This document shows positions 5,731 through 48,688 of a stretch of DNA of 64,000 nt, piece by piece. Each line of letters opens with the position of its first letter. Position 1 is the first letter of the stretch. The stretch covers positions 35,224,508-35,288,507 of the forward strand of contig NC_064439.1 of assembly GCF_023343835.1 (NCBI RefSeq), given 5' to 3'. The stretch is from Lagopus muta (lineage: Eukaryota > Chordata > Aves > Galliformes > Phasianidae). A model generated the notes under the pieces. That model was given only the letters and a program-made list of their open reading frames with translations. It was not told the origin of the DNA and did not search any database. The translations under genes and the position numbers were made by a program.

Positions 5731-7190
5731 CAATTCCCAACAATTTTAAGTTATTGGGAAGAAAAGAATAAGGAAGTCTTTAACCCTTTTAAGACATATA
5801 TTGATATTATTTCCGCAGCACATATCGAGGCAAAGTTATGCTTGCTTGTATTACATAGATTTCCAAGGAACACGGCCCACCAGACCTTTCAGGAGCCCAA
5901 AAATGAGCCATTGCACAGAGGCACTGTTCCGTTTGACAACAGTAAAGGGAATAACTGAGTGCAGCAGCTGCCTTACACAGCACGAGTCACTGCCAAGGGT
6001 GGCACATGAACTTTTGGCATATGTATGTTCATATTCACATGTAGAAATTACAAAACAGAAGTATAAAGGTAGTAACAAATGACTTTGCACATTCAAAGCT
6101 TCAGTCCTAACTTTAACAGGCGCTTTCCACTACAGAAATTCAGTATTCACGGCACGGCTTTGGAGGAGAAGAAAAAATATACAGCAAGACAGGTCATCCA
6201 CCTCTGTCACTGCAAAAACAACATGTTCACTCTAAAATAAAATCAGGAGGAGTGCAACTCACTTAACAGAACCAATTAAATTCCATTATTTATTAAATGT
6301 TCTGTTCCTTGGGTGAAACAGAGATGAAAGGTTTCTTGGGTGAAAAAGCATGGAGGAAGAGTGTGTGCATAAACGCCAGAATGTGCTGGGTCTTTTAGCC
6401 ACTGCCTATTTCAAAAGAAAAAATCTAAGAATATTTCACCAAATAGGTTGAGAGCTTACTGACGCTTTATTTTTCTTACCAAAACATTTTCCTTCTCAAG
6501 ATTTCCTGCTTATTTGTTCTAAGAACTCTAAGACAAGTTCCCTGCAGTCTTGCTGTATCTTATAACATAGCTGCTACCATAAATGCACCATTTTTAAGTC
6601 ATAGTGAAGGTTGCTTTGCTCCTTTTCAAGAAAACTTTGCCTTGCACGTAGCCCACAGCAACTAACAGAAATCATGAACACCGCTTGCAGCTCTGAAGCT
6701 TATGAACGTGAATTCCTACACGTTAGGAAGTCAAGAAAGAAATATGAACATCTCCACTGTGTGCCCAAAGCACTGAACAAGAGGAAACAAGGATTGGGAA
6801 ACCGCACCGGGTTAACTGGCTGTGCCACAGCAATTGAGTTTTTCCAACGTCTCAAATGTGTACTGCAGTGAAAATCCAGCACCCAACAAGGAGAATTTGC
6901 AGCTCTGTGCAGCGCTAAAGCACGCGTGTCCAACCCACTGGCTTGCCGGAGCCATACTGAATGAAGAATGAAGAAGGTCTTTGATCGCATATAAAATACA
7001 CATTGTAGTTCGGTTACACAAGAAAAAAGCTGTCCTGATTTTTAAGTTGTTTTTATTAAAGCATTCCGCTTGTGTCAGGAGTGTACGTGAGTCACGCAGT
7101 TCCTGCAGCAGCACAAACACACCTGTTCCCACCGGGGCAGTGATCAGGGAGAAGTCCAGCCCTCACCCCCAGAAGCGAGGCTCCACTGCC
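5731..7190. other. Conserved 5' segment of the array unit, function unknown
   Basis: This segment is repeated at about 13347-14806 and 21112-22577 with high identity. I find no domain in either strand. It holds a TATA-like stretch (CATATAAAATACAC near 6986-6999). The downstream 7190-7700 part is GC-rich and could contain the promoter or a noncoding first exon, since a good donor (GACTTG|GTGAGG) lies at 7697/7698. Open frames of about 85-130 codons recur on both strands in all copies, but near-identity of the copies makes that uninformative. Confidence 0.5.
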
Positions 7191-7895
7191 CCTAACCGCG
7201 CTTCTGCTGCAGGCACAGGTCCTGAGCACGGCCATTCTCTGCTGCCAGTGCCCCTGCTGCAGAAACAAGATCGCCACACTGAGTGCCTTCAGACACGCAC
7301 AACATGGGGATGTCAACCCCACTCGGGCTGGTGTCCTGCTGCTCTGGTAGGCCTGGCCCTCTGCTGTCCATGAGCTCTGTGCCAGGGTAGAAGAGCACGG
7401 CTGCCCTAGGGTGGATCCAGGGCTGCAGCCGTGCCCGAGGGACAGACAGCTCCACTGGCACGGGGATCATTGGCAGCAGGTGGAGGGAAGCGATCCTTCC
7501 TCCTGCAGCACGGCCAACACCCGGCCCCTCAGTCTGCGCAGAGCCCACGCCTTCCTGCTTGGGTATCCAGGGCCCCCACCTTCACCCGCCAGGTGGTGAC
7601 TGTGTCACAGTGGGTGCCAGGGAGCGGCCACTGTGACCCATGGGGCTGCGAGCAGAACAAAGGCTGCCAAGCTCAGAACCTGCGTCAGTGCGACTTGGTG
7701 AGGTGCGGAGAGGGCAGGGAGGAAAGGGCTGCCTGAGGCTGATAGCGGGAGGAAGGCTCCCACCCCCCTGTGCCCTGTGCTGTCAACTCACCCTTGTCCT
7801 GCTTCTCCCTCAGAGTTGGCAGAGGAGTGTGCAGAGGAGAAAGCTCAGCGTTGCCAGAGCAGGAACTCTGCAAGTGCTCGCTGTCGATGTGCGCC

Positions 7896-10609
7896 ATGGA
7901 GGCTCCCAACTGGATGGAGCCAGGTGAGAGCCAAGCATCCCTACTCACAGCTCCCCATCACCAGGCACCCTCCTTGCCCAGCACAGCCCTCAGGGACAGC
8001 TGGCCCTGCACCGCACTCACTGCTTTTGCTCTCTCCTCTCCAGCGTGCATGCTGTGCGGCCAGACAGATGCTGACCCAGACATCTGTGGGCTCAAGCACC
8101 TGGACTCTGGGATATGTGCCCATGCATTCTGTATGGTGAGTGCCCCTGGGGCTCCTTCTTTGCACCTTCCTCCAAGCAATGGTTCCTTCCTTCCTGTCCT
8201 CACACGATCCTGCTCTTTTCTCTCAAACAGGCATTTTCCAACGGCCTTCTCCAGCAGGCAACTAGAGTGAACATGACTGCTGAGGTGTCCCCTGCATACG
8301 TCCAACGCGTAATCCAGGAGGCAGAGCAGAAGGTGAGGACCTGACCGAGCAGGCTGGTTTGGGCCAGGAGAGGCTCCTCAAGCTCAGCCTGGTCCCCAGG
8401 AAGCAATCCTGGCCCTTCCAGCCAGCTCCAGTGCCTGCATGCTCTGTCCTGAGCCCTGCGCACAGGTGCAGGGCCAGCCACAAAGGCGCTGAGCCTGCTC
8501 CTGATGGCACTGCTCTGCTCCTTCCAGCACTGCTTCATTTGTGGCGAAACGGGGGCCCCCATCACGTGTGCAGAGACGGGCTGTGAACTGAGTTTCCATC
8601 TGCCCTGCGCCCGGGTGGGTGAATGTGTCACCCAGTATTATGGAAACTACAGGTAAGGACAACCCCTGTTGGCAATACCAGCCAAGGAAGTGAGCAACCC
8701 CCTGTGACTGCTCTCATTAGCCTGCAGAGCCAAGGCCCGGGGCTCCCTCCCATTCCTCTGCCCTCCGCACAGCTCTTCTCACCTTGCCCATCCCTTCCGT
8801 CTTCCCCCAGTTCATTCTGCCAGAAGCACAGCCCTGAGCAGGCTGCGGAGGCGACTCCAGAGCAAAACACCAACTGCATTATCTGCATGGAGCCAGTGGA
8901 GGACAACAAGTCCTACAGCACCCTGGTGTGCCCAGCCTGCAAACACGCCTGGTTCCACCGGGCCTGTATCCAGGTAGGAGCCCTCCCCTACACCAGCGGG
9001 CAAGCTGCAGCAGGCAACCCGCAGCACCTGAGCCTGCTCCTGCTCCCACTGATGACTGTGTTTCTGCTACAGGGACAGGCCATCCGTGCGGGCATTGACT
9101 GCTTCCAGTGCCCCCTCTGCAGAGATGCGGATGCCTTCCTCTCTGACATGCTCATCATGGGCATCCGAATCCCACTCAGGTTGGTGTTTTTCTGCCCGCT
9201 CTTGAGAATCAAGGGCACAAGCGCTGCGCCTGCCCAGGGATGGCTCCGGCAGGCCGGGCCCTTTGCTGCCCGTGACCCCAGGCTGCCCTCAGCTTCAAGG
9301 GGAAGCTGGAAATGGGCTTGGAGTGGAAGAGCAGGGCTGCTCTGCAGCAGCCTTAGTCCAGGGGCAGCAGGAGCTCATTGCATTTTCTCCTTTCTCTGGC
9401 AGTGGACCAATGTGGGAGGACGGCAATGCATACGCATCGCTGGGAGTGAGACACGGGCGCTGTGATGCCACCGAGTGCCTTTGTCCACAGGGCAGGGAGC
9501 AGGCAGAGGGAGAGGGGTGAGTTAGCTCAGCAGCCCTTGGGGGCTACGCGTGGGATCTCAGGCTAGGGGAACAAGCACTCCTTGCCTTGATGCACTTTGT
9601 CCTCACAGCCACAACCCCTTTCTTTTCCCAGGCCCTGGGAGATGCTCCTGTGCAGCTCCTGTGCTGCAGAAGGCACTCACCGGTGCTGCTCCCAGCTGAG
9701 CAACAGCGCGGACGAGTGGGAGTGCCAAGCCTGTGCTGGCGTGGGCACCGGTAAGAGGCAAATAGCCATGTGGGGGCCAGGCAAGGCCTGGCAGCGGGTG
9801 CCCGAGACAGCCTTGCCAAAGTCTCTCTGGCCCAAGCTGGATGGCAGCCTGGCCCGCGCCGGGGCTGGACGCCCACCCTGCTGACCTTCCTGACTTTCCC
9901 CCTTACAGCCTCCACTGTCAACTCAGAGGACACCGGCCCCAGCACCGCCAGCCAGCAAGGACTGCTGCCATCCCACAGTTCCACTGCACCTGAGAGCAGC
10001 AGCTCCAGCACTGCCAGCCAGGCAGCATCACGGCCTGGTCACAGTTCCCAGGTGCCTGACAGCGGCAGCCAGTCCAGCCAGCCTGGGACAGGCCAAAGCC
10101 ATGCTGCAGCTCCATCGGGTGCAGCTGAGAGGTGCACCCAAACATCAGCCGGTCAGAGGGCACCACGGTCCTCAAGGGCTTCCCGAGCAGCCGGCAGCCG
10201 CAGGTCCAGGCAGGGGGAGCGGAATCGGACACGAAGCCGCTCCCCAATCCAATCTCAGGCGCCACGTTCCAGCAGCCATCCCCAAAGGCGCTCTGGGAGG
10301 AGCCACGCACCTGCTCCAACGGCTGAGAGTGGCTCCCCACGCTACACCAGACGGGGAGCACTGGGGTCGTCAGGGGATGCCCCAGCGGCTGATGGAAGAA
10401 GCCAGCCCAGGCAGCTAGTGCAGGCCCAGACACGAAGCCGTTCCCCTGTGGAACTGCGGCCTGCACAATCCCGGGGCCAGCTCCAAAGACACCACAGGAG
10501 CCAGTCCAGGCGACGAAGGCCAGCCCAGGTGCAAAGCCGCTCCCGGGTACATCGGGCCACGAATCCCCGCAGCCGGCCCCAAAGTGGCCGCAGGACTAGC
10601 CGCATGTGA
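7896..10609 (+). CDS. PHF7-like: PHF7-like zinc-finger protein with RS-rich tail, array copy 1
   Basis: Coding exons: 7896-7923, 8044-8135, 8231-8332, 8528-8652, 8811-8973, 9073-9179, 9403-9516, 9632-9750, 9909-10609. All junctions are GT-AG and phases match; 1551 nt, 516 aa. An N-terminal extended PHD holds cysteines 11, 14, 24, 34 and 39, then C76/C79/C88/C93/H98/C101. A RING/PHD-like domain has C138-x2-C141, C156-x2-C159, H165-x2-C168, C183-x2-C186. A second PHD-like part has C226, C231, C251-x2-C254, H260, C262/263, W273 and C275-x2-C278. This order matches PHF7 (and the N-terminus of G2E3, but no HECT domain follows). PHF7 is a histone reader and ubiquitin ligase best known from the male germ line. 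Residues 370-516 are rich in RS/SR. The start at 7896 has a strong Kozak context (GCCATGG); an in-frame ATG at 7887 and an open frame back to the exon's acceptor (7814) leave a longer N-terminus possible. Residue 7 is Met here, Thr in the other copies. Confidence 0.85.
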
Positions 10610-10626
10610 GCCCCGTGTGCTGGCTC

Positions 10627-11028
10627 ATTTTGCTGACAACAACTTACGCAAGATTCCAAACAGCGCTAGATGTCATTCCATTCAGTGATAATAATCTCAA
10701 AAATGTCTTAAAATAAACTCAAAAAAAATTTACAAAAAAAATTGTCTATGCCTAAACTATTATGAGTTATAGTTCAAGAGAAAAAAAGAAAATAAATAAT
10801 GTAAGAATGCTGCATCCTTTTTTCTTCCCATGGCTACTACCCACAATGATGGCAGAAAGAATCATATAGACCATGGTGGAAGCACTATTCAGAAAGACCA
10901 GAAACAGTGAATTACAGTGATGCAAGCACATCTTTCAGAAAAACATTTATTGCATCAAGTACCAGAATTACGGCTGCTGTCAATTTAACTTAATGCAGAG
11001 CTCAAAGACTGAATTTATCAAGTATCTT
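10627..11028. repeat. 3' module A of unit 1, with captured EFHB 3' end
   Basis: It aligns with 18400-18801 (unit 2) and with 26171-26573 (unit 3/EFHB). In the last place it is the 3' UTR and final codons of EFHB, read on the minus strand. Here the minus-strand EFHB-like stop triplet (TTA on plus, near 11014-11017) and the TTTATT (AATAAA on minus) near 10948 are both kept, but no EFHB exon follows. Confidence 0.75.
10712..10717 (+). promoter_or_regulatory. Poly(A) signal, PHF7-like copy 1
   Basis: AATAAA lies about 100 nt after the stop codon, in an A-rich context. The same signal occurs at the matching place in the other two copies. Confidence 0.6.
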
Positions 11029-11554
11029 ACAATGCCCCAGGAGCAGCTGGATGTGAACCCCATGTGCTGGCTCCGGTCCTCAGAGGTCAGCACAATAGAA
11101 ACTGGAGTTCTCTTAGACGTTTCTTAGTGCCGTTCTCCTGTGCCTTTCCCAAGGTGGGATGCATTCGGGGCTGGAACCCCAGGGTACTCTTCTCCCTTGC
11201 ACATATCCCTTCCATACTTTCCTTCCCATGGCTGGGTCTAGGCAGAGCTGCGTTTCAGCCCCAGTTCCATTGGGGCTCAACATCTCCAATGCCCGCAGGC
11301 CAAGACCAGGCTAGCAGGGGCATCTATGTTCTGGCAATGCTTATGGCCTTGGGGCTGTCACTGTGTCCATGGCATGGAAGTCACCTCCCCCAGCAACCAG
11401 CTGTGGGCTGAGCCAGGGCCTGCCTGGGTTCTCCTTCTGCATTTCTGCAGTGCCAGAAGCTCTGAGTGGTGGTTCTGCTTTGAGTGCTTGAACCACTAAT
11501 TTCTGTCCCAAAGTCATTTTGTCTATCAAGCCTCCTGTATGAGTCCTGTAGGCC

Positions 11555-11800
11555 CCCTTTAGGTACTGGAAGGTCACTATGAGGTCCCCTCAAGTGCCTT
11601 CTCCAGGCTGAGGAGCCACTACTTTCACAGCCTGTCCTAACAGGGAAGATGCTTCAGCCCCCTGATGATCTCTCTGGCCCTCCTCTGGTCCTGCTCCAAT
11701 GTCCCTCTTCTATTGGGGGCCCCAGAACTGGACGTGGTACTCCCGGTGGGGTCTCACAAGAGCAGAGTAGAGGGGCAGAATCCTCTACTACTCTATTGCT
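11555..11800 (-). mobile_element. CR1 LINE fragment (unit 1)
   Basis: Reading the minus strand, this matches the CR1 segment upstream of the 3' UTR. Recognisable landmarks on plus are AGGTACTGGAAGGTCACTAT, GGGGCCCCAGAACTGGACG and GGGGTCTCACAAGAGCAGAG. Both ends are missing. It was carried along in the duplication: the same scrap sits at 19328-19573. Confidence 0.75.
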
Positions 11801-12364
11801 CCTCTAGGAGCAGCTCTGTTCCTGCCACTGCTTGTACACACGATGGCCACCCGTTATCTACTTGACCCAGTTGTCTAGAGCAATATCCCACCAGCCTCTT
11901 CCAGGACTCAGTGTGCTCTCTTAGCACTTCCGTTACAATGTGATGCCTTTTGTGCACATGTCATACAAAAGGCTTTTCCAGACTGGGAAGTGCCAGAGCA
12001 GCTTTCAATTGGATAAAGGCAGTTTGGCATTCTGGGTTCTATTCCGAAGATTCTCCTTCTCCTTTAACAGCTTAAGCAAACAAAGGTTTCACAATCAGTC
12101 CATAATTCCGTATTCACATCAACACCATCCTGCCATACTCAACGTAAGAAAGTGCGCCGTTCCTGTTTTGGCTTTGGCTCTGGTGTTTGATGCACTGCCT
12201 TCTTTCTCTCAATCTCCAAGCTTCAATATCCCGGAGTGATGATAAAACATACATACATCACAGGCTGTGATTTCTTCTTCAGTGAAGAAGAATTCTTTTG
12301 AGGTGCATGCACCATCCATAATATAGCTAATGCATGTAACCAACAGATTCTTCATACATTCCAT

Positions 12365-12620
12365 TTCAGAATGTATTTAGGTCAACTGATAATGGTGTCA
12401 CAAATATTCCAAAAAATCAACCATTTTTTCGGCACTCTTGAAACCCGTTCTCAAATTCCTTAGTCAAAACGGAAAGCACGGGTGCATATTTCTGGCTGTT
12501 TGTGGGACTGTGTTTATCCACTGTATCAAAATTCATAAAATGATTCGCCGTGATTTGAGTTTGCAACACAGTGCACCCTGCCTCCTGCTTACAGCCCAGC
12601 CAGTACTGATCGCACACCAG
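12365..12620 (-). pseudogene. hAT-type transposase relic (GTF2IRD2/Charlie-like), unit 1
   Basis: On the minus strand the frame reads LTKEFENGFQECRKN, a stop, then FFGIFVTPLSVDLNTF. This strongly recalls the conserved block of hAT-Charlie transposases and of host proteins derived from them (GTF2IRD2, ZBED/FAM200 type), where an acidic 'EF..RFQ' motif precedes 'FVTPFSVD'. Stops at the N-G and F-N-G junctions show that it no longer codes. No terminal inverted repeats were identified, so either an old transposon or a retrocopy of a domesticated gene is possible. Confidence 0.5.
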
Positions 12621-12971
12621 TGTTTGGGCACAGGTGAACAGTTAGTGCTCTGAATGTGCGACCTCCCAGGCTTTTCTGACTACCTCGTCTGTATGTCTAT
12701 ATCACTTTCCAATATTCTTTAAAATATCCATCCTTTTTTTCATCTCTGTCAAAATGAACACCACAAACAAATAGCCGTAAGCTGGCATAGACAATGGAAG
12801 TCTTCTGCAATACTACTGGGCATTTCTGTTTGCGTTTAATTGATGGATTCTTAACCGAGGCGACTTCACCACAACACATTGGATCCTACAGCGCAACTAA
12901 GTATCTTAAGGTCAAGCAGCTTGATGCATGGATTTTTAAACACATCAAATAACCTAGCCAGTTCTCTGCTA

Positions 12972-13330
12972 CCATTTTGCTGACAAGAACTTACGGAACA
13001 TTCAAAACTGTGCTAGAAGTCATTCAATGATAATCATCTCAAAAATATCTTAAAATTAACTCAAATAAAAAAAGAAAAAACAAAATAAACTGTCTACACC
13101 TAAAGTATTATGAATTACAGTGCAGTGCGGGGGGGGGAGGGGGGAGGGAGGAGGAAGGGCGGGAAGGGAGAAAATAAAGAATGTAAGAATGCTACATCCT
13201 CTTTTCTTCTCATGGATACTAACAGTAATGACGGCAGAAACAATCATATAGAACCGTGGAGAAAACACTATTCAGAAAGACCATAAACAGTCAATTCCAA
13301 ATATGTAAGCAAATCTGTGTAAAAACAATC
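12972..13330. repeat. Diverged 3' module B at the end of unit 1
   Basis: It aligns to the 3' module after the PHF7-like stop codon (landmarks: ATTTTGCTGACAA, TCATTCAATGATAAT, AGTATTATGA, AAGAATGCTACATCC, ACTATTCAGAAAGACCA), but is clearly more diverged than the modules of the three genes are from each other. It sits just upstream of the next unit and looks like the leftover 3' end of an older, lost gene copy. Confidence 0.7.
13128..13170 (+). repeat. G-rich low-complexity tract
   Basis: A nearly pure G/A run with many GGG blocks separated by one to three bases. Its length differs from the counterpart at 20904-20935, consistent with slippage. The pattern allows a G-quadruplex. Confidence 0.7.
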
Positions 13331-15511
13331 AAAACAACCAAACAATCAATTCCCAGCAATTTTAAGTTATTGGGAAGAAAAGAATAAGGAAGTCTTTAAC
13401 CCTTTTAAGAAGTATATTATTTCCGCAGCACATATTGAGGCAAAGTTATGTTTGCATGCATTACATGGATTTTCAAGGAACACGGCCCACCAGACCTTTC
13501 AGGAGCCCAAAAATGAGCCATTGCACAGAGGCACTGTTCCGTTTGACAACAGTAAAGGGAATAACTGAGTGCAGCAGCTGCCTTACACAGCACGAGTCAC
13601 TGCCAAGGGTGGCACATGAACTTTTGGCATATGTATGTTCATATTCACATGTAGAAATTACAAAACAGAAGTATAAAGGTAGTAACAAATGACTTTGCAC
13701 ATTCAAAGCTTCAGTCCTAACTTTAACAGGCGCTTTCCACTACAGAAATTCAGTATTCACGGCACGGCTTTGGAGGAGAAGAAAAAATATACAGCAAGAA
13801 AGGTCTTCCACCTCTGTCACTGCAAAAACAACATGTTCATTCTAAAATAAAATCAGGAGGAGTGCAACTCACTTAACAGAACCAATTAAATTCCATTATT
13901 TATTAAATGTTCTGTTCCTTGGGTGAAACAGAGATGAAAGGTTTCTTGGGTGAAAAAGCATGGAGGAAGAGTGTGTGCATAAACGCCAGAATGTGCTGGG
14001 TCTTTTAGCCACTGCCTATTTCAAAAGAAAAAATCTAAGAAGAATATTTCACCAAATAGGTTGAGAGCTTACTGACGCTTTATTTTTCTTACCAAAACAT
14101 TTTCCTTCTCAAGATTTCCTGCTTATTCGTTCTAAGAACTCTAAGACAAGTTCCCTGCAGTCTCGCTGTATCTTATAACATAGCTGCTACCATAAATGCA
14201 CCATTTTTAAGTCATAGTGAAGGTTGCTTTGCTCCTTTTCAAGAAAACTTTGCCTTGCACGTAGCCCACAGCAACTAACAGAAATCATGAACACCGCTTG
14301 CAGCTCTGAAGCTTATGAACGTGAATTCCTACACGTTAGGAAGTCAAGAAAGAAATATGAACATCTCCACTGTGTGCCCAAAGCACTGAACAAGAGGAAA
14401 CAAGGATTGGGAAACCGCACCGGGTTAACTGGCTGTGCCACAGCAATTGAGTCTTCCCAAGGTCTCGTATGTGTATTGCAGTGAAAATCCAGCACCCAAC
14501 AAGGAGAATTTGCAGCTCTGTGCAGCGCTAAAGCACGCGTGTCCAACCCACTGGCTTGCCGGAGCCATATTGAATGAAGAAGAATGAAGAAGGTCTTTGA
14601 TCGCATATAAAATACACATTGTAGTTCGGTTACACAAGAAAAAAGCTGTCCTGATTTTTAAGTTGTTTTTATTAAAGCATTCCGCTTGTGTCAGGAGTGT
14701 ACGTGAGTCACGCAGTTCCTGCAGCAGCACAAACACACCTGTTCCCACCGGGGCAGTGATCAGGGAGAAGTCCAGCCCTCACCCCCAGAAGCGAGGCCCC
14801 ACTGCCCCTAACCGCGCTTCTGCTGCAGGCACAGGTCCTGAGCACGGCCATTCTCTGCTGCCAGTGCCCCTGCTGCAGAAACAAGATCGCCACACTGAGT
14901 GCCTTCAGACACGCACAACATGGGGATGTCAACCCCACTCGGGCTGGTGTCCTGCTGCTCTGGCAGGCCTGGCCCTCTGCTGTCCATGAGCTCTGTGCCA
15001 GGGTAGAAGAGCACGGCTGCCCTAGGGTGGATCCAGGGCTGCAGCCGTGCCCGAGGGACAGACAGCTCCACTGGCACGGGGATCATTGGCAGCAGGTGGA
15101 GGGAAGCGATCCTTCCTCCTGCAGCACGGTCAACACCCGGCCCCTCAGTCTGCGCAGAGCCCACGCCTTCCTGCTTGGGTATCCAGGGCCCCCACCTTCA
15201 CCCGCCAGGTGGTGACTGTGTCACAGTGGGTGCCAGGGAGCGGCCACTGTGACCCATGGGGCTGCGAGCAGAACAAAGGCTGCCAAGCTCAGAACCTGCG
15301 TCAGTGCGACTTGGTGAGGTGCGGAGAGGGCAGGGAGGAAAGGGCTGCCTGAGGCTGATAGCGGGAGGAAGGCTCCCACCCCCCTGTGCCCTGTGCTGTC
15401 AACTCACCCTTGTCCTGCTTCTCCCTCAGAGTTGGCAGAGGAGTGTGCAGAGGAGAAAGCTCAGCATTGCCGGAGCAGGAACTCTGCAAGTGCTCGCTGT
15501 TGATGTGCGCC

Positions 15512-18382: not shown

Positions 18383-18399
18383 GCCCCGTGTGCTGGCTC

Positions 18400-18801
18400 A
18401 TTTTGCTGACAACAACTTACGCAAGATTCCAAACAGCGCTAGATGTCATTCCATTCAGTGATAATAATCTCAAAAATGTCTTAAAATAAACTCAAAAAAA
18501 ATTTACAAAAAAAATTGTCTATGCCTAAACTATTATGAGTTATAGTTCAAGAGAAAAAAAGAAAATAAATAATGTAAGAATGCTGCATCCTTTTTTCTTC
18601 CCATGGCTACTACCCACAATGATGGCAGAAAGAATCATATAGACCATGGTGGAAGCACTATTCAGAAAGACCAGAAACAGTGAATTACAGTGATGCAAGC
18701 ACATCTTTCAGAAAAACATTTATTGCATCAAGTACCAGAATTACGGCTGCTGTCAATTTAACTTAATGCAGAGCTCAAAGACTGAATTTATCAAGTATCT
18801 T
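18400..18801. repeat. 3' module A of unit 2, with captured EFHB 3' end
   Basis: This is a near-identical counterpart of 10627-11028; the EFHB-like homology ends at the same base. Confidence 0.75.
18485..18490 (+). promoter_or_regulatory. Poly(A) signal, PHF7-like copy 2
   Basis: AATAAA about 100 nt downstream of the stop codon, at the position matching copy 1. Confidence 0.6.
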
Positions 18802-19327
18802 ACAATGCCCCAGGAGCAGCTGGATGTGAACCCCATGTGCTGGCTCCGGTCCTCAGAGGTCAGCACAATAGAAACTGGAGTTCTCTTAGACGTTTCTTAG
18901 TGCCGTTCTCCTGTGCCTTTCCCAAGGTGGGATGCATTCGGGGCTGGAACCCCAGGGTACTCTTCTCCCTTGCACATATCCCTTCCATACTTTCCTTCCC
19001 ATGGCTGGGTCTAGGCAGAGCTGCGTTTCAGCCCCAGTTCCATTGGGGCTCAACATCTCCAATGCCCGCAGGCCAAGACCAGGCTAGCAGGGGCATCTAT
19101 GTTCTGGCAATGCTTATGGCCTTGGGGCTGTCACTGTGTCCATGGCATGGAAGTCACCTCCCCCAGCAACCAGCTGTGGGCTGAGCCAGGGCCTGCCTGG
19201 GTTCTCCTTCTGCATTTCTGCAGTGCCAGAAGCTCTGAGTGGTGGTTCTGCTTTGAGTGCTTGAACCACTAATTTCTGTCCCAAAGTCATTTTGTCTATC
19301 AAGCCTCCTGTATGAGTCCTGTAGGCC

Positions 19328-19573
19328 CCCTTTAGGTACTGGAAGGTCACTATGAGGTCCCCTCAAGTGCCTTCTCCAGGCTGAGGAGCCACTACTTTCA
19401 CAGCCTGTCCTAACAGGGAAGATGCTTCAGCCCCCTGATGATCTCTCTGGCCCTCCTCTGGTCCTGCTCCAATGTCCCTCTTCTATTGGGGGCCCCAGAA
19501 CTGGACGTGGTACTCCCGGTGGGGTCTCACAAGAGCAGAGTAGAGGGGCAGAATCCTCTACTACTCTATTGCT
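19328..19573 (-). mobile_element. CR1 LINE fragment (unit 2)
   Basis: Duplicate of the scrap at 11555-11800, with the same ends, so it predates the duplication of the unit. Confidence 0.75.
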
Positions 19574-20137
19574 CCTCTAGGAGCAGCTCTGTTCCTGCCA
19601 CTGCTTGTACACACGATGGCCACCCGTTATCTACTTGACCCAGTTGTCTAGAGCAATATCCCACCAGCCTCTTCCAGGACTCAGTGTGCTCTCTTAGCAC
19701 TTCCGTTACAATGTGATGCCTTTTGTGCACATGTCATACAAAAGGCTTTTCCAGACTGGGAAGTGCCAGAGCAGCTTTCAATTGGATAAAGGCAGTTTGG
19801 CATTCTGGGTTCTATTCCGAAGATTCTCCTTCTCCTTTAACAGCTTAAGCAAACAAAGGTTTCACAATCAGTCCATAATTCCGTATTCACATCAACACCA
19901 TCCTGCCATACTCAACGTAAGAAAGTGCGCCGTTCCTGTTTTGGCTTTGGCTCTGGTGTTTGATGCACTGCCTTCTTTCTCTCAATCTCCAAGCTTCAAT
20001 ATCCCGGAGTGATGATAAAACATACATACATCACAGGCTGTGATTTCTTCTTCAGTGAAGAAGAATTCTTTTGAGGTGCATGCACCATCCATAATATAGC
20101 TAATGCATGTAACCAACAGATTCTTCATACATTCCAT

Positions 20138-20393
20138 TTCAGAATGTATTTAGGTCAACTGATAATGGTGTCACAAATATTCCAAAAAATCAACCATTTT
20201 TTCGGCACTTTTGAAACCCGTTCTCAAATTCCTTAGTCAAAACGGAAAGCACGGGTGCATATTTCTGGCTGTTTGTGGGACTGTGTTTATCCACTGTATC
20301 AAAATTCATAAAATGATTCGCCGTGATTTGAGTTTGCAACACAGTGCACCCTGCCTCCTGCTTACAGCCCAGCCAGTACTGATCGCACACCAG
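20138..20393 (-). pseudogene. hAT-type transposase relic (GTF2IRD2/Charlie-like), unit 2
   Basis: Duplicate of the relic in unit 1, with the same in-frame stops, so it was already dead when the unit was copied. One visible difference (ECRKN to KCRKN). Confidence 0.5.
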
Positions 20394-20749
20394 TGTTTGG
20401 GCACAGGTGAACAGTTAGTGCTCTGAATGTGCGACCTCCCAGGCTTTTCTGACTACCTCGTCTGTATGTCTATATCACTTTCCAATATTCTTTAAAATAT
20501 CCATCCTTTTTTTCATCTCTGTCAAAATGAACACCACAAACAAATAGCCGTAAGCTGGCATAGACAATGGAAGTCTTCTGCAATACTACTGGGCATTTCT
20601 GTTTGCGTTTAATTGATGGATTCTTAACCGAGGCGACTTCACCACAACACATTAGATCCTACAGCACGACTAAGTATCTTAAGGTCAAGCAGCTTGATGC
20701 ATGGATTTTTAAACGCATCAAATAACTTAACCTAGCCAGTTCTCTGCTA

Positions 20750-21095
20750 CCATTTTGCTGACAAGAACTTACGGAACATTCAAAACTGTGCTAGAAGTCA
20801 TTCAATGATAATCATCTCAAAAATATCTTAAAATTAACTCAAAAAAAAAGAAAAAACAAAATAAACTGTCTACACCTAAAGTATTATGAGTTACAGTGCA
20901 GTGCGGGCGGGGGGGGAGGAAGGGCGGGAAGGGAGAAAATAAAGAATGTAAGAATGCTACATCCTCTTTTCTTCTCATGGATTCTAACAGTAATGATGGC
21001 AGAAACAATCATATAGAACCGTGGAGAAAACACTATTCAGAAAGACCATAAACAGTCAATTCCAAATATGTAAGCAAATCTGTGTAAAAGCAATC
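20750..21095. repeat. Diverged 3' module B at the end of unit 2
   Basis: Counterpart of 12972-13330, immediately upstream of unit 3. It contains a shorter G-rich tract (about 20904-20935). Confidence 0.7.
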
Positions 21096-23282
21096 AAAAC
21101 AACCAAACAATCAATACCCAGCAATTTTAAGTTATTGGGAAGAAGAGAATAAGGAAGTCTTTAACCCTTTTAAGACATATATTAATATTATTTCCGCAGC
21201 ACGTATCGAGACAAAGTTATGCTTGCTTGTATTACATAGATTTCCAAGGAACATGGCCCACCAGACCTTTCAGGAGCCCAAAAATGAGCCATTGCACAGA
21301 GGCACTGTTCCGTTTGACAACAGTAAAGGGAATAACTGAGTGCAGCAGCTGCCTTACACAGCACGAGTCACTGCCAAGGGTGGCACATGAACTTTTGGCA
21401 TATATATGTTCATATTCACATGCAGAAATTACAACACAGAAATATAAAATGAGTAACAAATGACTTTGCACATTCAAAGCTTCAGTCCTAACTTTAACAG
21501 GCGCTTTCCACTACAGAAATTCAGTATTCACGGCACGGCTTTGGAGGAGAAGAAAAAATATACAGCAAGAAAGGTCTTCCACCTCTGTCACTGCAAAAAC
21601 AACATGTTCATTCTAAAATAAAATCAGGAGGAGTGCAACTCACTTAACAGAACCAATTAAATTCCATTATTTATTAAATGTTCTGTTCCTTGGGTGAAAC
21701 AGAGATGAAAGGTTTCTTGGGTGAAAAAGCATGGAGGAAGAGTGTGTGCATAAACGCCAGAATGTGCTGGGTCTTTTAGCCACTGCCTATTTCAAAAGAA
21801 AAAATCTAAGAAGAATATTTCACCAAATAGGTTGAGAGCTTACTGACGCTTTATTTTTCTTACCAAAACATTTTCCTTCTCAAGATTTCCTGCTTATTTG
21901 TTCTAAGAACTCTAAGACAAGTTCCCTGCAGTCTCGCTGTATCTTATAACATAGCTGCTACCATAAATGCACCATTTTTAAGTCATAGTGAAGGTTGCTT
22001 TGCTCCTTTTCAAGAAAACTTTGCCTTGCACGTAGCCCACAGCAACTAACAGAAATCATGAACACTGCTTGCAGCTCTGAAGCTTATGAACGTGAATTCC
22101 TACACGTTAGGAAGTCAAGAAAGAAATATGAACATCTCCACTGTGTGCCCAAAGCACTGAACAAGAGGAAACAAGGATTGGGAAACCGCACCGGGTTAAC
22201 TGGCTGTGCCACAGCAATTGAGTTTTTCCAACGTCTCAAATGTGTACTGCAGTGAAAATCCAGCACCCAACAAGGAGAATTTGCAGATCTGTGCAGCGAT
22301 AAAGCACACGTGTCCAACCCACTGGCTTGCCGGAGCCATACTGAATGAAGAAGAATGAAGAAGGTCTTTGATCGCATATAAAATACACATTGTAGTTCGG
22401 TTACACAAGAAAAAAGCTGTCCTGATTTTTAAGTTGTTTTTATTAAAGCATTCCGCTTGTGTCAGGAGTGTACGTGAGTCACGCAGTTCCTGCAGCAGCA
22501 CAAACACACCTGTTCCCACCGGGGCAGTGATCAGGGAGAAGTCCAGCCCTCACCCCCAGAAGCGAGGCTCCACTGCCCCTAACCGCGCTTCTGCTGCAGG
22601 CACAGGTCCTGAGCATGGCCATTCTCTGCTGCCAGTGCCCCTGCTGCAGAAACAAGATCGCCACACTGAGCGCCTTCAGACACGCACAACATGGGGATGT
22701 CAACCCCACTCGGGCTGGTGTCCTGCTGCTCTGGCAGGCCTGGCCCTCTGCTGTCCATGAGCTCTGTGCCAGGGTAGAAGAACACGGCTGCCCTAGGGTG
22801 GATCCAGGGCTGCAGCCGTGCCCGAGGGACAGACAGCTCCACTGGCACGGGGATCATTGGCAGCAGGTGGAGGGAAGCGATCCTTCCTCCTGCAGCACGG
22901 TCAACACCCGGCCCCTCAGTCTGCGCAGAGCCCACGCCTTCCTGCTTGGGTATCCAGGGCCCCCACCTTCACCCGCCAGGTGGTGACTGTGTCACAGTGG
23001 GTGCCAGGGAGCGGCCACTGTGACCCATGGGGCTGCGAGCAGAACAAAGGCTGCCAAGCTCAGAACCTGCGTCAGTGCGACTTGGTGAGGTGCGGAGAGG
23101 GCAGGGAGGAAAGGGCTGCCTGAGGCTGATAGCGGGAGGAAGGCTCCCACCCCCCTGTGCCCTGTGCTGTCAACTCACCCTTGTCCTGCTTCTCCCTCAG
23201 AGTTGGCAGAGGAGTGTGCAGAGGAGAAAGCTCAGCGTTGCCGGAGCAGGAACTCTGCAAGTGCTCGCTGTCGATGTGCGCC

Positions 23283-26153
23283 ATGGAGGCTCCCAACTGG
23301 ACGGAGCCAGGTGAGAGCCAAGCATCCCTACTCACAGCTCCCCATCACCAGGCAGAGGGGTCTTGGGTCTCTGCCTGTGGCTGAGAAGGGGGGCAGGCGT
23401 GGGCAGGGACTCCCCAGCCGCTGTGGGCAGGGTGGGTCCCTCTGCGCGTTGGCTGGGGTGGCACCGCTTGGGCCGTCCGTGGCTGTCTGCTGGGGCTGAC
23501 AGCCTGCAATACCCTCCTTGCCCAGCACAGCCCTCAGGGACAGCTGGCCCTGCACCGCACTCACTGCTTTTGCTCTCTCCTCTCCAGCGTGCATGCTGTG
23601 TGGCCAGACAGATGCTGACCCAGACATCTGTGGGCTCAAGCACCTGGACTCTGGGATATGTGCCCATGCATTCTGTATGGTGAGTGCCCCTGGGGCTCCT
23701 TCTTTGCACCTTCCTCCAAGCAATGGTTCCTTCCTTCCTGTCCTCACACGATCCTGCTCTTTTCTCTCAAACAGGCATTTTCCAACGGCCTTCTCCAGCA
23801 GGCAACTAGAGTGAACACGACTGCTGAGGTGTCCCCTGCATACGTCCAACGCGTAATCCAGGAGGCAGAGCAGAAGGTGAGGACCTGACCGAGCAGGCTG
23901 GTTTGGGCCAGGAGAGGCTCCTCAAGCTCAGCCTGGTCCCCAGGAAGCAATCCTGGCCCTTCCAGCCAGCTCCAGTGCCTGCATGCTCTGTCCTGAGCCC
24001 TGCGCACAGGTGCAGGGCCAGCCACAAAGGCGCTGAGCCTGCTCCTGATGGCACTGCTCTGCTCCTTCCAGCACTGCTTCATTTGTGGCGAAACGGGGGC
24101 CCCCATCACGTGTGCAGAGACGGGCTGTGAACTGAGTTTCCATCTGCCCTGCGCCCGGGTGGGTGAATGTGTCACCCAGTATTATGGAAACTACAGGTAA
24201 GGACAACCCCTGTTGGCAATACCAGCCAAGGAAGTGAGCAACCCCCTGTGACTGCTCTCATTAGCCTGCAGAGCCAAGGCCCGGGGCTCCCTCCCATTCC
24301 TCTGCCCTCCGCACAGCTCTTCTCACCTTGCCCATCCCTTCCGTCTTCCCCCAGTTCATTCTGCCAGAAGCACAGCCCTGAGCAGGCTGCGGAGGCGACT
24401 CCAGAGCAAAACACCAACTGCATTATCTGCATGGAGCCAGTGGAGGACAACAAGTCCTACAGCACCCTGGTGTGCCCAGCCTGCAAACACGCCTGGTTCC
24501 ACCGGGCCTGTATCCAGGTGGGAGCCCTCCCCTACACCAGCGGGCAAGCTGCAGCAGGCAACCCGCAGCACCTGAGCCTGCTCCCGCTCCCACTGATGAC
24601 TGTGTTTCTGCTACAGGGACAGGCCATCCGTGCGGGCATTGACTGCTTCCAGTGCCCCCTCTGCAGAGATGCGGATGCCTTCCTCTCTGACATGCTCATC
24701 ATGGGCATCCGAATCCCACTCAGGTTGGTGTTTTTCTGCCCGCTCTTGAGAATCAAGGGCACAAGCGCTGCGCCTGCCCAGGGACGGCTCCGGCAGGCCT
24801 GGCCCTTTGCTGCCCGTGACCCCAGGCTGCCCTCAGCTTCAAGGGGAAGCTGGAAATGGGCTTGGAGTGGAAGAGCAGGGCTGCTCTGCAGCAGCCTTAG
24901 TCCAGGGGCAGCAGGAGCTCATTGCATTTTCTCCTTTCTCTGGCAGTGGACCAATGTGGGAAGACGGCAATGCATACGCATCGCTGGGAGTGAGACACGG
25001 GCGCTGTGATGCCACCGAGTGCCTTTGTCCACAGGGCAGGGAGCAGGCAGAGGGAGAGGGGTGAGTTAGCTCAGCAGCCCTCGGGGGCTACGCGTGGGAT
25101 CTCAGGCTAGGGGAACAAGCACTCCTTGCCTTGATGCACTTTGTCCTCACAGCCACAACCCCTTTCTTTTCCCAGGCCCTGGGAGATGCTCCTGTGCAGC
25201 TCCTGTGCTGCAGAAGGCACTCACCGGTGCTGCTCCCAGCTGAGCAACAGTGCGGACGAGTGGGAGTGCCAAGCCTGTGCTGGCGTGGGCACTGGTAAGA
25301 GGCAAATAGCCATGTGGGGGCCAGGCAAGGCCTGGCAGCGGGTGCCCGAGACAGCCTTGCCAAAGTCTCTCTGGCCCAAGCTGGATGGCAGCCTGGCCCG
25401 CGCCGGGGCTGGACGCCCACCCTGCTGACCTTCCTGACTTTCCCCCTTACAGCCTCCACTGTCAACTCAGAGGTCACCGGCCCCAGCACCGCCAGCCAGC
25501 AAGGACTGCTGCCATCCCACAGTTCCACTGCACCTGAGAGCAGCAGCTCCAGCACTGCCAGCCAGGCAGCATCACGGCCTGGTCACAGTTCCCAGGTGCC
25601 TGACAGCGGCAGCCAGTCCAGCCAGCCTGGGACAGGCCAAAGCCATGCTGCAGCTCCATCGGGTGCAGCTGAGAGGTGCACCCCAACGTCGGCCGGTCAG
25701 AGGGCACCACGGTCCTCAAGGGCTTCCCGAGCAGCCGGCAGCCGCAGGTCCAGGCAGGGGGAGCGGAATCGGACACGAAGCCGCTCCCCAATCCAATCTC
25801 AGGCGCCACGTTCCAGCAGTCATCCCCAGAGGCGCTCTGGGAGGAGCCACGCACCTGCTCCAATGGCTGAGAGTGGCTCCCCACGCTACACCAGACGGGG
25901 AGCACTGCGGTCGTCAGGGGATGCCCCAGCGGCTGATGGAAGAAGCCAGCCCAGGCAGCTAGTGCAGGCCCAGACACGAAGCCGTTCCCCTGTGGAACGG
26001 CGGCCTGCACAATCCCGGGGCCAGCTCCAAAGACACCACAGGAGCCAGTCCAGGCGACGAAGGCCAGCCCAGGTGCAAAGCCGCTCCCGGGTACATCGGG
26101 CCACGAATCCCCGCAGCCGGCCCCAAAGTGGCCGCAGGACTAGCCGCATGTGA
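23283..26153 (+). CDS. PHF7-like: PHF7-like zinc-finger protein with RS-rich tail, array copy 3
   Basis: Coding exons: 23283-23310, 23588-23679, 23775-23876, 24072-24196, 24355-24517, 24617-24723, 24947-25060, 25176-25294, 25453-26153. The frame is intact, 516 aa. This is the most distinct copy: relative to copies 1 and 2 it has M55T in the linker between the two halves of the extended PHD, and D291V, Q361P, T421M, G436R and L466R in the tail. None touches a zinc ligand, and two of the tail changes add arginines. Five of the six changes fall in the RS-rich last exon. The gene is convergent with EFHB: the stop codons are about 400 bp apart. Its array position next to an intact single-copy gene suggests that it occupies the original locus. 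Confidence 0.85.
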
Positions 26154-26255
26154 GCCCCGTGTGCTGGCTCATTTTGCTGACAACAACTTACGCAAGATTC
26201 CAAACAGTGCTAGATGTCATTCCATTCAATGATAATAATCTCAAAAATGTCTTAA

Positions 26256-26261
26256 AATAAA
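26256..26261 (+). promoter_or_regulatory. Poly(A) signal, PHF7-like copy 3
   Basis: AATAAA about 100 nt downstream of the stop codon. It lies about 230 bp short of the opposing EFHB poly(A) signal, so the two 3' UTRs need not overlap. Confidence 0.6.
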
Positions 26262-26490
26262 CTCAAAAAAAATTTACAAAAAAAAACGTTCTGTGCCTAA
26301 AGTATTATGAGTTATAGTTCAGGAGAAAAAAAGAAAATAAATAACGTAAGAATGCTGCATCCTTTTTTCTTCCCATGGCTACTACCCACAATGATGGCAG
26401 AAAGAATCATATAGACCATGGTGGAAGCACTATTCAGAAAGACCAGAAACAGTGAATTACAGTTATGCAAGCACATCTTTCAAAAAAATA

Positions 26491-26496
26491 TTTATT
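26491..26496 (-). promoter_or_regulatory. EFHB: Poly(A) signal of EFHB
   Basis: TTTATT on plus is AATAAA on minus, about 65 nt beyond the EFHB stop codon. It lies within the part shared with the PHF7-like array modules. Confidence 0.6.
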
Positions 26497-26559
26497 GCAT
26501 TAAGTACCAGAATTATTACTGCTGTCAATTTAACTTAATGCAGAGCTCAAAGAGTGGAT

Positions 26560-29500
26560 TTAGCAACTGTCTTTTGTGTCTGGTGCATGAATCTCATCCA
26601 GTATATTTCTTATACTTTCTACACAAACCTCTTCTTTTTGTTGTTTCATGCATACTTGTTTCCATATTTCTTCAAATCTTTCATCTGAAATGTTCACACC
26701 AATGTTGTGAAGAATTTGTGCTACCTATAAAAGAATACAACTCATGTAATTCTGATTGGTAATTTCTTTAAACTAGACTGTAAAGTCTAGTTTTCACATA
26801 CATTCGCAATCCACATCCTGGATGATTAACCCATGAAGTTCCCACATCAGTGAAATGGAATCTTATATTGATGAAAACAGTGGTATACAAAACTGTTTTA
26901 ATAAGGTTGAAACAACTTTAATGTTGAAAATACAAATACGAATACTACTATGTGGAGGATAAATAACTAGAAGTTCTCATAACTTTCTTTATCAATACTA
27001 ACTTATTAAAATACAATTATGTCCTGACTCATCAGCAGCCATAAAATACTCACTGACTAAACCTTACATTATCAAGTGCACACATGGTTTTGTCTTGCTC
27101 TTATGTACTATCAACACGATCATATTGAATATCAAGTACACGCTATTACTCAGCCAAGTAATTTAAATTCTTTTTTACTATTGGATTCTATTGAAGACAA
27201 CAGCAGGTTTAGAAACACTTTGTTCCTTTTTAACAGGAAACATCACATTACAAAACTGTTTCATAGTCAGAATTGTCATCAATTACTAGAGGCCTATTCA
27301 CAAACTGATACTATGACACAACTTCAGGTTTTCATGTAATAATTTAGTTAGCTACTAAATGTTTCGAGATATTAATGATCCATGCCAATATAAATCAAAA
27401 GAACATCACCAACACTGAAGCAACCTATTTCATGAGTATTGGATGATTTAATGCACTCAGAGATAGTTCTGTACTGCACTCTGTATAGCCTGTGTAGTCT
27501 ACAATGGAGGATGACATCTCAGGCCACATAACTTCAGAGATCTATCTGGAGCTTGACAGGTACAATGGACTTCTCAGTGAAGCACAAATTCTATTTGCTG
27601 TTAGCCATACACTGCACACACAGATTTCCTGCTTGAGAGCTACATTATAAAATGGTAAATGCTCATGTGCATGACAAGCTATTTTAAGGATATTTATGGA
27701 ACATGACACTATATCTTTTACATCCCCACCACTAATTAGCAACATTTTTTTCTGCAAAATGTATGCACTTCCAGATGTACTTTCATATGACATCCAGTCA
27801 TTTATCTAATAAAATGACTAGAAGAGATGGACAGTTTGTTAATGTTTCTTTTTCCATTTCAGATTAAAATTTCATATTTTCCTATCGTTGACTCATAAAT
27901 CATATTTCAATAATTAAGTGATCTCTTTTTTCATTAGAAAATGCTGAGAAATAAAATAGAAAAACCATAAGCAACATAGAACAAGGGGCAACATTGTTTT
28001 AGCATTTATGCTGGATGAACTTTGGGTTGCCAAACAAGAGTGGTAGCAGCCCCCAAAGATATCAGTTGAAAAATGCTTTTAAATTGCTATTAGCAAAACC
28101 AGGCAGTTCAAGGGAAGACAATCTGGCCAAAATTTTTACTGAAAATTCCTGTGTGACAGAAACTAATTTTACACATCTGCAAAATTCTTTCTCTAGGAAA
28201 ACAAAAACAACAACAACAAAAAACCTATTTATGCATTTATTTTTATATGATTCTATCTACTGATAGAATTATACAATAATTCATGTGGAAGAGATCTCTG
28301 GAGATAATCCATCTAATCATACAATCAAAGAAGGGCTAAATTCATCACTAAACCATATTCCTTGGGATGTGGCTCAGAACTTGAATACATCCAAAGATGG
28401 AAATTTCACATCTGTTCTGAATTACAGAATCACAGGATCATAGGGGTTAGAAAGGACCCCTAGAGATCATCTTGTTCAACCGCAAAACACATTCAAAAGA
28501 GTAAGCTGCACAGACATGTGTGAAGGCAGGTTTTGAGTATCTCCAGAAAAGGAGACTCCACAAGCTTGTTCCAGTGCTCTGCCACACTCAAAGTAAAGAC
28601 ATTTTTCCTCATGTTCACATGGAATTTCCCGTGTTCCAGTTTGTGCCTGTTTATCTTTGTCCCATCACCAGAGACCACTGAAAAAATCTTAGGCCCAACC
28701 TCTTGTCACCCACCCTTCAGATATTTACAAGCATTGATAAAATCCCCTCAGTCTTCTCTTTCCCAGGTTGAACTGGTCCAAGTCTCTCAGCCTTTCCTCA
28801 TAAGCGAGATGCTCCACACCCCTAAACATCTTCATGGCCCTTCACTGGACTCTCTCCAGTAGTTCCCTGTCTTTCTTAAATTGAGAACCCAGAACTGGAT
28901 ACAGTACTCCAGACCCAAGAGATGGAACACCTCCCCTGTGAAGAGAGGCTGAGAGAGCTGGTGCTCTTCAGCCTGAAGAAGAGAAGGCTCTGGGGAGATC
29001 TCATAGCAGCTTTCAATATCAAAATAGGGACTTTAAGAAAGAAGATTACAGACTTTTTAGCAGGCTTTATTGTGGTTGGACAAGGGGAAATGGTTTCATA
29101 CTATAAGAGTGGATATTTAGATTGGATATAAGAAAGTTTTTCTATGATAAGTGTAGTGAAGCACTGGAGTAGGGTGTCCAGAGAGGTGGTGAATGACCCA
29201 TCCCTTAAGACATTCAAGGTCAGGCTGGGCAGGGCTCTGAGCAACTGGATCTTGCTGTAGAAGTCCCTGTTCATTGTAAGGGAGTTGGACTAGATGACTT
29301 TTAAAGATACCTTCCAACTCAAATGATTCTATGATTCTACATGGCCTCCCCAAGGCAGAGTAGAGGGAGAGGATCACCTCCCTTGACCTGCTGGCCAGCT
29401 CTTTCTAACACAGCCCAAGATACCATTGTGCTTTTTAGATACAAGGGCACACCAGTAGCTCATTACCAACCCGCTGTCTACCAGGACACCCAGGTCCTTC

Positions 29501-44887: not shown

Positions 44888-44910
44888 GGTGCAAGTGGGG
44901 CGGTTTACCC

Positions 44911-44924
44911 GCTGGCCTGGTAAC
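44911..44924 (-). promoter_or_regulatory. Candidate RFX X-box in the EFHB promoter
   Basis: GCTGGCCTGGTAAC lies 24 bp upstream of the EFHB ATG. Its right half (GGTAAC) is a perfect RFX half-site and the left half departs by one base from the RYYRYY consensus. X-boxes drive many ciliary genes, so the site fits the gene, but it is a short motif. Confidence 0.35.
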
Positions 44925-47205: not shown

Positions 47206-47751
47206 CACAGGTCACTCTGAAAGTAATGCCTCTTATTTCCACACAAATACAGCATATACCACAAAAAGTATAACACTGTTTGATAGAGCAAACTCTCAGC
47301 TAAAAAAAAACACTATTTTTCAACACAGTCATCACCATTAGCTTTGCATTTTTGCCAGCAGTGAACAAGAACATGCATGCTGTGCTTGTAAAAATCTGCA
47401 GCAGTGGAGGTGAACCACTGTCACCACTGCTGAAACATATTACCCACTGCCTCATTGTGTTCTCATCCACTGTTTGATCTCCATAAACGTTCAGCAAGCT
47501 CTGATGAGCATCAGTGGGTACCATTTTTTTCTGCATGGAGGCTTCCAATTACAAACCTTTGCTTCACATGCACTTTCATGTCAGACACCAAATTGTCAGA
47601 TTGTGCCTCTGCTGCCATCTGTCACATGACAACAAAATGAAGCAGAATATCAGTGGGAAGGTTCGATCTTTACTGCCATATCACCAACATCCTCCTGTGA
47701 CATCATGAGCCAATGTGATAAACTAGGAAGCATTACTTTTGGTGTACCCTA
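47206..47751 (-). mobile_element. Mariner DNA transposon, internally deleted (Galluhop-like)
   Basis: The element has TA on both sides and imperfect terminal inverted repeats, both containing AAAGTAATGC (left: GGTCACTCTGAAAGTAATGC; right end GCATTACTTTTGGTGTACCC). The minus strand at 47548-47300 keeps transposase text: LLNVYGDQTVDENTMRQWV (helix-turn-helix region) and CMFLFTAGKNAKLMVMTVLK. At about 546 bp it is less than half the length of an intact mariner, so it lacks most of the catalytic part and cannot move itself. Confidence 0.85.
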
Positions 47752-48655: not shown

Positions 48656-48688
48656 AATTGAAAATATACGTAGAGGATATTTTCAATT
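48656..48688. repeat. Perfect 12-bp inverted repeat
   Basis: AATTGAAAATAT and its exact reverse complement ATATTTTCAATT, separated by 9 bases. Followed at once by a second small hairpin (CTAGGA/TCCTAG). AT-rich; function unknown. Confidence 0.8.

What the first reader, a model, noticed from the sequence alone, without database searches (positions are those of the whole stretch)
5731..26573. Recent tandem array of intact PHF7-like genes beside EFHB
Three complete, open, nearly identical copies of a PHD/RING-type gene lie head to tail. Introns and flanks are as alike as the exons, so the copies are young or kept alike. PHF7 in mammals and flies is a single germ-line gene; amplification of a spermatogenesis-type chromatin ligase suggests dosage selection or germ-line conflict. 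That interpretation is inference.
Basis: partly seen in the sequence, partly recalled or inferred. Interest (0 to 1): 0.8.

Follow-up and report, generated by a model that had tools for sequence, protein, structure and literature searches.

The report
Tandem PHF7 gene trio beside EFHB
This bird chromosome carries three intact, nearly identical copies of PHF7, a sperm-development gene, in a row; PHF7 is already known to be multiplied in birds, so this is a well-preserved further example rather than a new kind of thing.

Summary
Three head-to-tail units (period about 7.77 kb, 5714-26573) each hold an intact nine-exon PHF7-type gene of 516 codons; solved PHF7 chains are the best match (E 1.3e-56). 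One detail is wrong: flanks are not as alike as exons. Gene bodies differ by 0.1-1.0%, 5' flanks by 1.4-1.7%, a 3' segment of copy 3 by 4.8%. That segment is the tail of EFHB: units 1 and 2 carry truncated pieces of EFHB's 3' end, found nowhere else in the genome by the search used. With a mosaic copy 2 and a tail of an older PHF7 copy in the spacers, this favours an old array kept alike by unequal exchange or conversion. The array is one of many here: 89 RING-exon matches, none with a stop inside, on eight contigs. Bird PHF7 expansion is published: 63 or 60 copies in chicken, testis-biased; also turkey, zebra finch, duck. Finger residues are nearly invariant in the 44 other loci compared. Dosage selection or germ-line conflict is untested. 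New member of a known kind; modest interest.

The parts
5714..13330 (+). Tandem unit 1 (7.6 kb; lacks 157 bp of intron 1)
13331..21095 (+). Tandem unit 2 (7.77 kb)
21096..26573 (+). Tandem unit 3, terminal, without the 2.3 kb spacer
7896..10609 (+). PHF7-like gene copy 1, 9 coding exons: 7896-7923, 8044-8135, 8231-8332, 8528-8652, 8811-8973, 9073-9179, 9403-9516, 9632-9750, 9909-10609; 516 aa
   Evidence: Pfam zf-HC5HC2H; PDB PHF7
15512..18382 (+). PHF7-like gene copy 2, same 9 exons; 516 aa
23283..26153 (+). PHF7-like gene copy 3, same 9 exons; 516 aa
10627..11028 (-). Segment F in unit 1: truncated copy of the EFHB 3' end, 17 bp after the PHF7 stop; on the plus strand it holds AATAAA 103 and 182 bp from the PHF7 stop
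18400..18801 (-). Segment F in unit 2 (100% to unit 1)
26171..26573 (-). Segment F in unit 3: the 3' end of EFHB itself (stop codon 26562-26560, AATAAA at 26496, minus strand)
11034..12531 (+). Part of the spacer colinear with the 3' flank of several PHF7 genes of contig C14 (with a dispersed repeat inside at about 11544-11787): tail of an older copy
12973..13316 (-). F-prime in unit 1: older, diverged copy of F (about 15% substitutions; 73% with gaps)
20752..21081 (-). F-prime in unit 2 (76% with gaps)
7198..7284 (+). Possible relic of PHF7 exon 6 upstream of copy 1 (48% of 23 aa, E 0.001; 69-80% DNA over 65-135 bp to some C14 loci)
   Evidence: weak
26560..26724 (-). EFHB last coding exon, matching residues 777-824 of an 833-residue EFHB chain; tail to tail with PHF7 copy 3, stops 407 bp apart
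26560..42106 (-). EFHB stretches found, from residue 377 to near the end of chains of 833-877 residues; the N-terminal part was not found (one of three frames of 34001-48700 was not searched)

Best explanation
An array of PHF7 genes, probably autosomal, in a pheasant-like bird, one of many in its genome. A PHF7 copy of the lineage that also gave the C14 family came to lie tail to tail with EFHB. An early duplication of the region, breaking inside EFHB's 3' end, left copies of that end (F and F-prime) and the tail of an older PHF7 copy between the genes. Unequal crossing-over or gene conversion then made and homogenised the present three genes. Each gene most likely makes a working PHF7-type protein (extended PHD, RING, PHD-like finger, Ser/Arg-rich basic tail) that reads histone H3 and ubiquitinates histones in spermatids during histone-to-protamine exchange; many copies would raise output or give backup. 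Shown: anatomy, intactness, homology, constraint, EFHB fragments, genome-wide family. Inferred: order of events, expression, ligase activity, any benefit of dosage.
For: Intact models 3 of 3. PHF7 chains 8jwj and 8jwu (mouse, by recall), E 1.3e-56 and 5.3e-56, along all three finger modules. No HECT in the 516 aa. 25 of 29 Cys/His columns shared with 8jwj are unchanged in every row with data; rows: 44 fetched loci and the window array, out of 89 RING-exon matches of which 3 are the window's, 46 were fetched and 2 of those (L028, L054) left out. In the six aligned finger exons of the three copies dN 0, mean dS 0.022; whole CDS copies 1-3 dN 0.006, dS 0.022. F gives 5 matches in the genome, 3 F and 2 F-prime, all in this array. 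Site patterns: 56 sites 12|3, 22 sites 13|2, 15 sites 23|1; mixed before about 9.5 kb, all 32 after it 12|3, while copies 2 and 3 share the 157 bp: copy 2 is a mosaic. Tree: the array groups with the C14 clade (0.945) but outside it (0.953), on a stem of its own. Testis bias of chicken PHF7 copies: PMC6609395, passages.
Against: No transcript or read-depth data. Copies 1 and 2 differ by only 0.1-0.4% from exon 1 to the end of the spacer, which allelic variation could also give, so one of the two could be an assembly duplicate (against that: 1.43% in the 5' flank and the 157 bp difference). The 4.8% in F could partly reflect loss of constraint in the truncated copies rather than age. No second bird's EFHB locus was available. 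Constraint is not uniform in the family: in some other arrays replacement changes outnumber silent ones (C1:2.07-2.15 Mb mean 2.8 to 1.3, C14:1.70-1.73 Mb with 2.21 Mb 6.2 to 3.6, C1:181 Mb 15 to 9), though dN stays below dS in these.
Confidence: 0.8

Rival explanations
1. One recent tandem amplification: three copies made at nearly one time a few million years ago, with no homogenisation afterwards.
For: Low CDS and intron divergence; flanks outside the array show no further copies of the unit.
Against: Divergence is uneven: 0.13% CDS to 1.43% 5' flank between copies 1 and 2, 4.77% in F for copy 3 (Fisher p 1e-6 and 2e-8). Site patterns conflict along the unit. F-prime differs from F by about 15%.
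Confidence: 0.12
2. Assembly artefact: alternative haplotypes of one or two true copies laid in tandem.
For: Copies 1 and 2 are almost identical from exon 1 to the end of the spacer, apart from 157 bp.
Against: Copy 3 carries EFHB's own 3' end while units 1 and 2 carry truncated copies about 5% diverged, so at least two copies are real; the stretch has no N; many other arrays of the family exist here and multiplication is published in chicken.
Confidence: 0.08
3. Copies retained for germ-line conflict or a male dosage arms race, as in sex-linked ampliconic testis genes.
For: 25 of 89 RING-exon matches lie on C59, probably the Z (by size only; inference), 24 of them in six arrays; chicken has 16 of 60 on Z (PMC12794477, passage); testis bias in chicken (PMC6609395, passages).
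Against: This array is on C10, probably an autosome; within it the finger exons show no replacement change; the tail has 5 replacement and 4 silent changes between copies 1 and 3 (dN 0.010, dS 0.022), no sign of rapid evolution.
Confidence: 0.15
4. Members of the G2E3 family rather than PHF7.
For: Same kind of three zinc-finger modules; the finger part of Phf7 is said to have evolved from G2E3 (PMC7973481, passage).
Against: G2E3 has a HECT domain (PMC12794477, passage); none in the CDS, and none near C10:35.2 Mb among the HECT matches listed, a cut list.
Confidence: 0.02

Closest known systems
Chicken PHF7 expansion (63 co-orthologues, PMC6609395; 60 copies, PMC12794477; Fouchecourt et al. 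2022, seen only as a reference in PMC10360393)
   Same: Many PHF7 copies, in clusters on five chromosomes (PMC10360393, passage) and on Z; PHD fingers, no HECT
   Different: Another species: ovomucoid third domain identical to OMSVP3 (silver pheasant by recall), one residue from the turkey domain; chicken's differs by recall. The EFHB-end fragments are not in the passages I saw; the 2022 paper is not held
Turkey PHF7 orthogroup expansion (PMC10360393, passages)
   Same: Expanded family in another phasianid
   Different: No locus anatomy in the passages seen
PHF7 of PDB 8jwj and 8jwu (mouse by recall; 8jwu fused to UBE2D2)
   Same: ePHD, RING and PHD-like modules; 29 shared Cys/His columns
   Different: Single gene in mammals (recalled); the window protein has a 232-residue Ser/Arg-rich tail, net charge +30
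Drosophila Phf7 (PMC7973481, passages)
   Same: Fingers plus a lineage-specific C-terminus
   Different: The fly C-terminus matches no known domain; kinship with the bird tail not tested

Membership tests
PHF7 | Extended PHD (zf-HC5HC2H) | tested here: met
   Pfam PF13771 51.1 bits over cut-off 29.1, residues 36-123
PHF7 | RING-type finger with its Cys/His residues | tested here: met
   Aligned with the 8jwj RING throughout; all seven shared Cys/His columns of the finger (columns 127-175) unchanged in all rows. Pfam zf-RING_2 alone is 25.9 bits, just under its cut-off 27.3
PHF7 | C-terminal PHD-like module | tested here: met
   PDB 1weq (PHF7) matches residues 213-280, E 1.5e-15
PHF7 | No HECT domain | tested here: met
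   (cut list)
PHF7 | E3 activity on histones with a UBE2D-type E2 | not testable with these tools
   inferred from homology to 8jwu
PHF7 | Testis or spermatid expression | not testable with these tools
   chicken copies testis-biased by PMC6609395, passages
G2E3 | HECT domain | tested here: not met
   (cut list)

The most novel reading that the evidence does not exclude
Bird PHF7 arrays are old loci whose copies are actively kept identical across millions of years, and this one shows it directly: the units are stamped with fragments of EFHB, a sperm-axoneme gene (by recall), whose diverged state dates the array while the PHF7 genes between them stay alike. Each PHF7 copy has taken its likely poly(A) signals from EFHB's flank, so the EFHB end and the PHF7 dose may be tied by selection in the male germ line.
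Probability: 0.2. Interest if true: 0.5.

Novelty: new member of a known kind. Interest (0 to 1): 0.3.

Why it matters
Bird PHF7 is a strikingly multiplied male-fertility gene, and why it multiplied is open. This locus offers an internal clock (F and F-prime against the gene bodies) to separate recent birth from conversion, and a gapless, compact array for copy-number and expression tests. By itself it does not change the picture already published for chicken and turkey.

Tried and rejected
Antisense overlap of PHF7 and EFHB transcripts: considered because the genes are convergent, but the AATAAA signals (PHF7 copy 3 at 26256 and 26336, EFHB at 26496 on the other strand) leave a gap of roughly 100 bp, so no overlap is predicted. 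F as a transposable element: rejected, 5 matches in the genome, all in this array. The 5' flank 5714-7100 as a dispersed repeat: rejected, full length only in the three units; the other 5 of 8 matches are short and weak. C9:33.95 Mb as G2E3: I first assumed it; the C9 HECT matches listed nearest (34.146 Mb) are 190 kb away on the other strand, so left open. A first exon model began two bases late and was corrected. A relaxed search for relics gave mostly chance hits; only the exon 6 relic is kept, as weak. A second census with another RING exon did not complete, so 89 rests on one query.
Full report
What is there. The window is C10:35224508-35288507 of a 1.03 Gb genome in 165 contigs. Two exons of an ovomucoid third domain found in that genome join to a sequence identical to OMSVP3 (1iy5, 2ovo) and one residue from the turkey domain that I had typed; OMSVP3 is silver pheasant and chicken's domain differs, both by recall. 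So the bird is a pheasant-like phasianid. Self-comparison gives three direct units: 5714-13330, 13331-21095, 21096-26573.

The genes. In each unit nine coding exons with GT/AG borders give 1551 bp and 516 aa with no internal stop (3 of 3). Pfam finds the extended PHD finger (51.1 bits, cut-off 29.1) and a RING just under its cut-off (25.9, cut-off 27.3). The best solved relatives are PHF7 chains 8jwj and 8jwu, the latter fused to UBE2D2, E 1.3e-56 and 5.3e-56, along all three modules (mouse, by recall). The last exon encodes a 232-residue tail, 39% Ser plus Arg, net charge +30. A crude search for the longest frame behind exon 8 gave tails with 31-38% Ser plus Arg in 17 of 20 C14 loci; it gave 12-13% in L011, L024 and L028, and 18-19% in the six C1 loci, where it may have picked a wrong frame.

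The neighbour. Read on the minus strand with stops read through, five stretches between 42106 and 26581 match solved EFHB chains: residues 377-437, 523-590, 567-647, 709-781 and 777-824 of chains of 833-877 residues. Only two of three frames were searched above 34.9 kb, and the N-terminal part was not found. The last exon runs from 26724 to the stop codon 26562-26560; an AATAAA follows at 26496. PHF7 copy 3 stops at 26153. The two genes are tail to tail, 407 bp apart. A RAB5-type exon at about 58.5 kb was recognised by eye from memory only (sequence).

The stamp of EFHB. The last 403 bp of unit 3 (segment F, 26171-26573) is EFHB's 3' end and downstream flank. Units 1 and 2 carry the same segment 17 bp after their PHF7 stop; the likeness ends about 11 bp upstream of EFHB's stop codon. 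An older version, F-prime, ends each spacer (12973-13316, 20752-21081; 73-76% alike with gaps, about 15% substitutions). A search of the whole genome with F gives 5 matches, all here, so it is local sequence, not a transposable element. Between F and F-prime, 11034-12531 is colinear with the 3' flank of several C14 PHF7 genes, the tail of an older copy; 7198-7284 may be a relic of exon 6 (weak).

How alike. Copies 1-2: CDS 2 of 1551, introns 4 of 1163, 5' flank 31 of 2175, F and spacer 11 of 2708. Copies 1-3: 15 of 1551, 5 of 1163, 32 of 2181, F 20 of 419. Copies 2-3: 15 of 1551, 10 of 1320, 38 of 2181, F 20 of 419 (gaps counted apart). F (1-3) against CDS plus introns p 2e-8; 5' flank (1-2) against CDS plus introns p 1e-6. 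Gene bodies, introns included, are more alike than flanks, which selection on exons alone does not explain. Copy 2 shares 157 bp of intron 1 with copy 3, but its 3' half with copy 1: a mosaic, as unequal crossing-over or conversion leaves. In the 5' flank all three pairings occur (19, 19 and 12 sites), so no single exchange accounts for it. With a recalled bird rate of about 1.9e-9 per site per year, 1.5% is about 4, 4.8% about 13 and the corrected 17% between F and F-prime about 45 million years; rough, and truncated F copies may have lost constraint.

The family. A 55-residue RING exon gives 89 matches in this genome, 0 with a stop inside (92 candidates, 92 scored): C1 32, C59 25, C14 20, C29 5, C10 3, C23 2, C24 1, C9 1. 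Many are evenly spaced arrays. I fetched 46 of the 86 outside the window. Exons 2 and 4-8 keep order and spacing in nearly all; exon 2 was not found in L010-L012, exon 3 was missed in many, exon 8 in L044, and L028 and L054 gave the RING exon alone. L050 on C29 has a stop in exon 6, so not every copy is sound. In a FastTree tree of 44 fetched loci, one row for the window array and PHF7 8jwj, the array groups with the C14 clade, which includes one C24 and one C59 locus (0.945), but outside it (0.953), on a stem of its own. Arrays sampled more than once mostly form tight clades (C1:2.07-2.15 Mb 1.0, C29 0.999, C14:2.23-2.34 Mb 1.0), but not always: L024 lies inside the C14:1.70-1.73 Mb cluster yet branches apart, L025 from 2.21 Mb joins that cluster, and the C59:70-71.5 Mb arrays are not cleanly separated. 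Of 29 Cys/His columns shared with 8jwj, 25 never change; column 24 varies freely, L014 changes column 97, and the two C59:60 Mb loci change columns 247 and 262. dN/dS between lineages is 0.24-0.49 over eight pairs; within some other arrays replacement changes outnumber silent ones while dN stays below dS, and the two C59:60 Mb loci differ by one replacement and no silent change.

What is known. PMC6609395 (passages): 63 predicted chicken co-orthologues of Phf7, testis-biased, 38 in zebra finch, 17 in turkey, 6 in duck. PMC12794477 (passage): 60 in chicken, 16 on Z, one G2E3. PMC10360393 (passages): expansion in turkey, clusters on five chicken chromosomes, citing Fouchecourt et al. 2022, which is not held. 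PMC4373106 (passage): the canary genome did not show the zebra finch expansion, a result against generality in songbirds. A search for PHF7 with EFHB listed one paper, on mouse implantation, not opened; the other PHF7 searches did not name EFHB. The 2022 paper could describe this locus in chicken.

Judgement. Real, intact, constrained, and one array among many of a published family. The EFHB fragments are the useful new detail. Function in sperm chromatin exchange is carried over from mouse and chicken and is not shown here.

Noticed in passing
G000:C19:9.097-9.381 Mb (L057 = C19:9149000-9156500): At least 26 tandem copies, mostly 10.4-10.7 kb apart, of a HECT-domain gene (some with a stop inside the match); one frame of one copy is closest to ITCH among solved structures, E 1e-30. 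One paper search listed nothing on it.
   Followed up: partly
G000:C59, 60.4-71.6 Mb: 24 of the 25 PHF7 RING exons of C59 (75 Mb, probably Z by size) sit in six arrays; the two loci fetched from the 60 Mb arrays have lost two conserved finger residues.
   Followed up: partly
G000:C29:4.708 Mb (L050): One PHF7 copy has a stop in exon 6 where the inverted copy L051 at 4.749 Mb, otherwise identical in the aligned exons, has none.
   Followed up: no
G000:C9:33952508-33952672: Lone RING-exon match at 41% identity, open, without other PHF7 exons found within 0.9 kb; not shown to be G2E3.
   Followed up: partly
window 30409-33573, 39439-39886, 54621-55133: Dispersed repeat copies (65-90% alike) around EFHB, probably CR1 by eye.
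   Followed up: no
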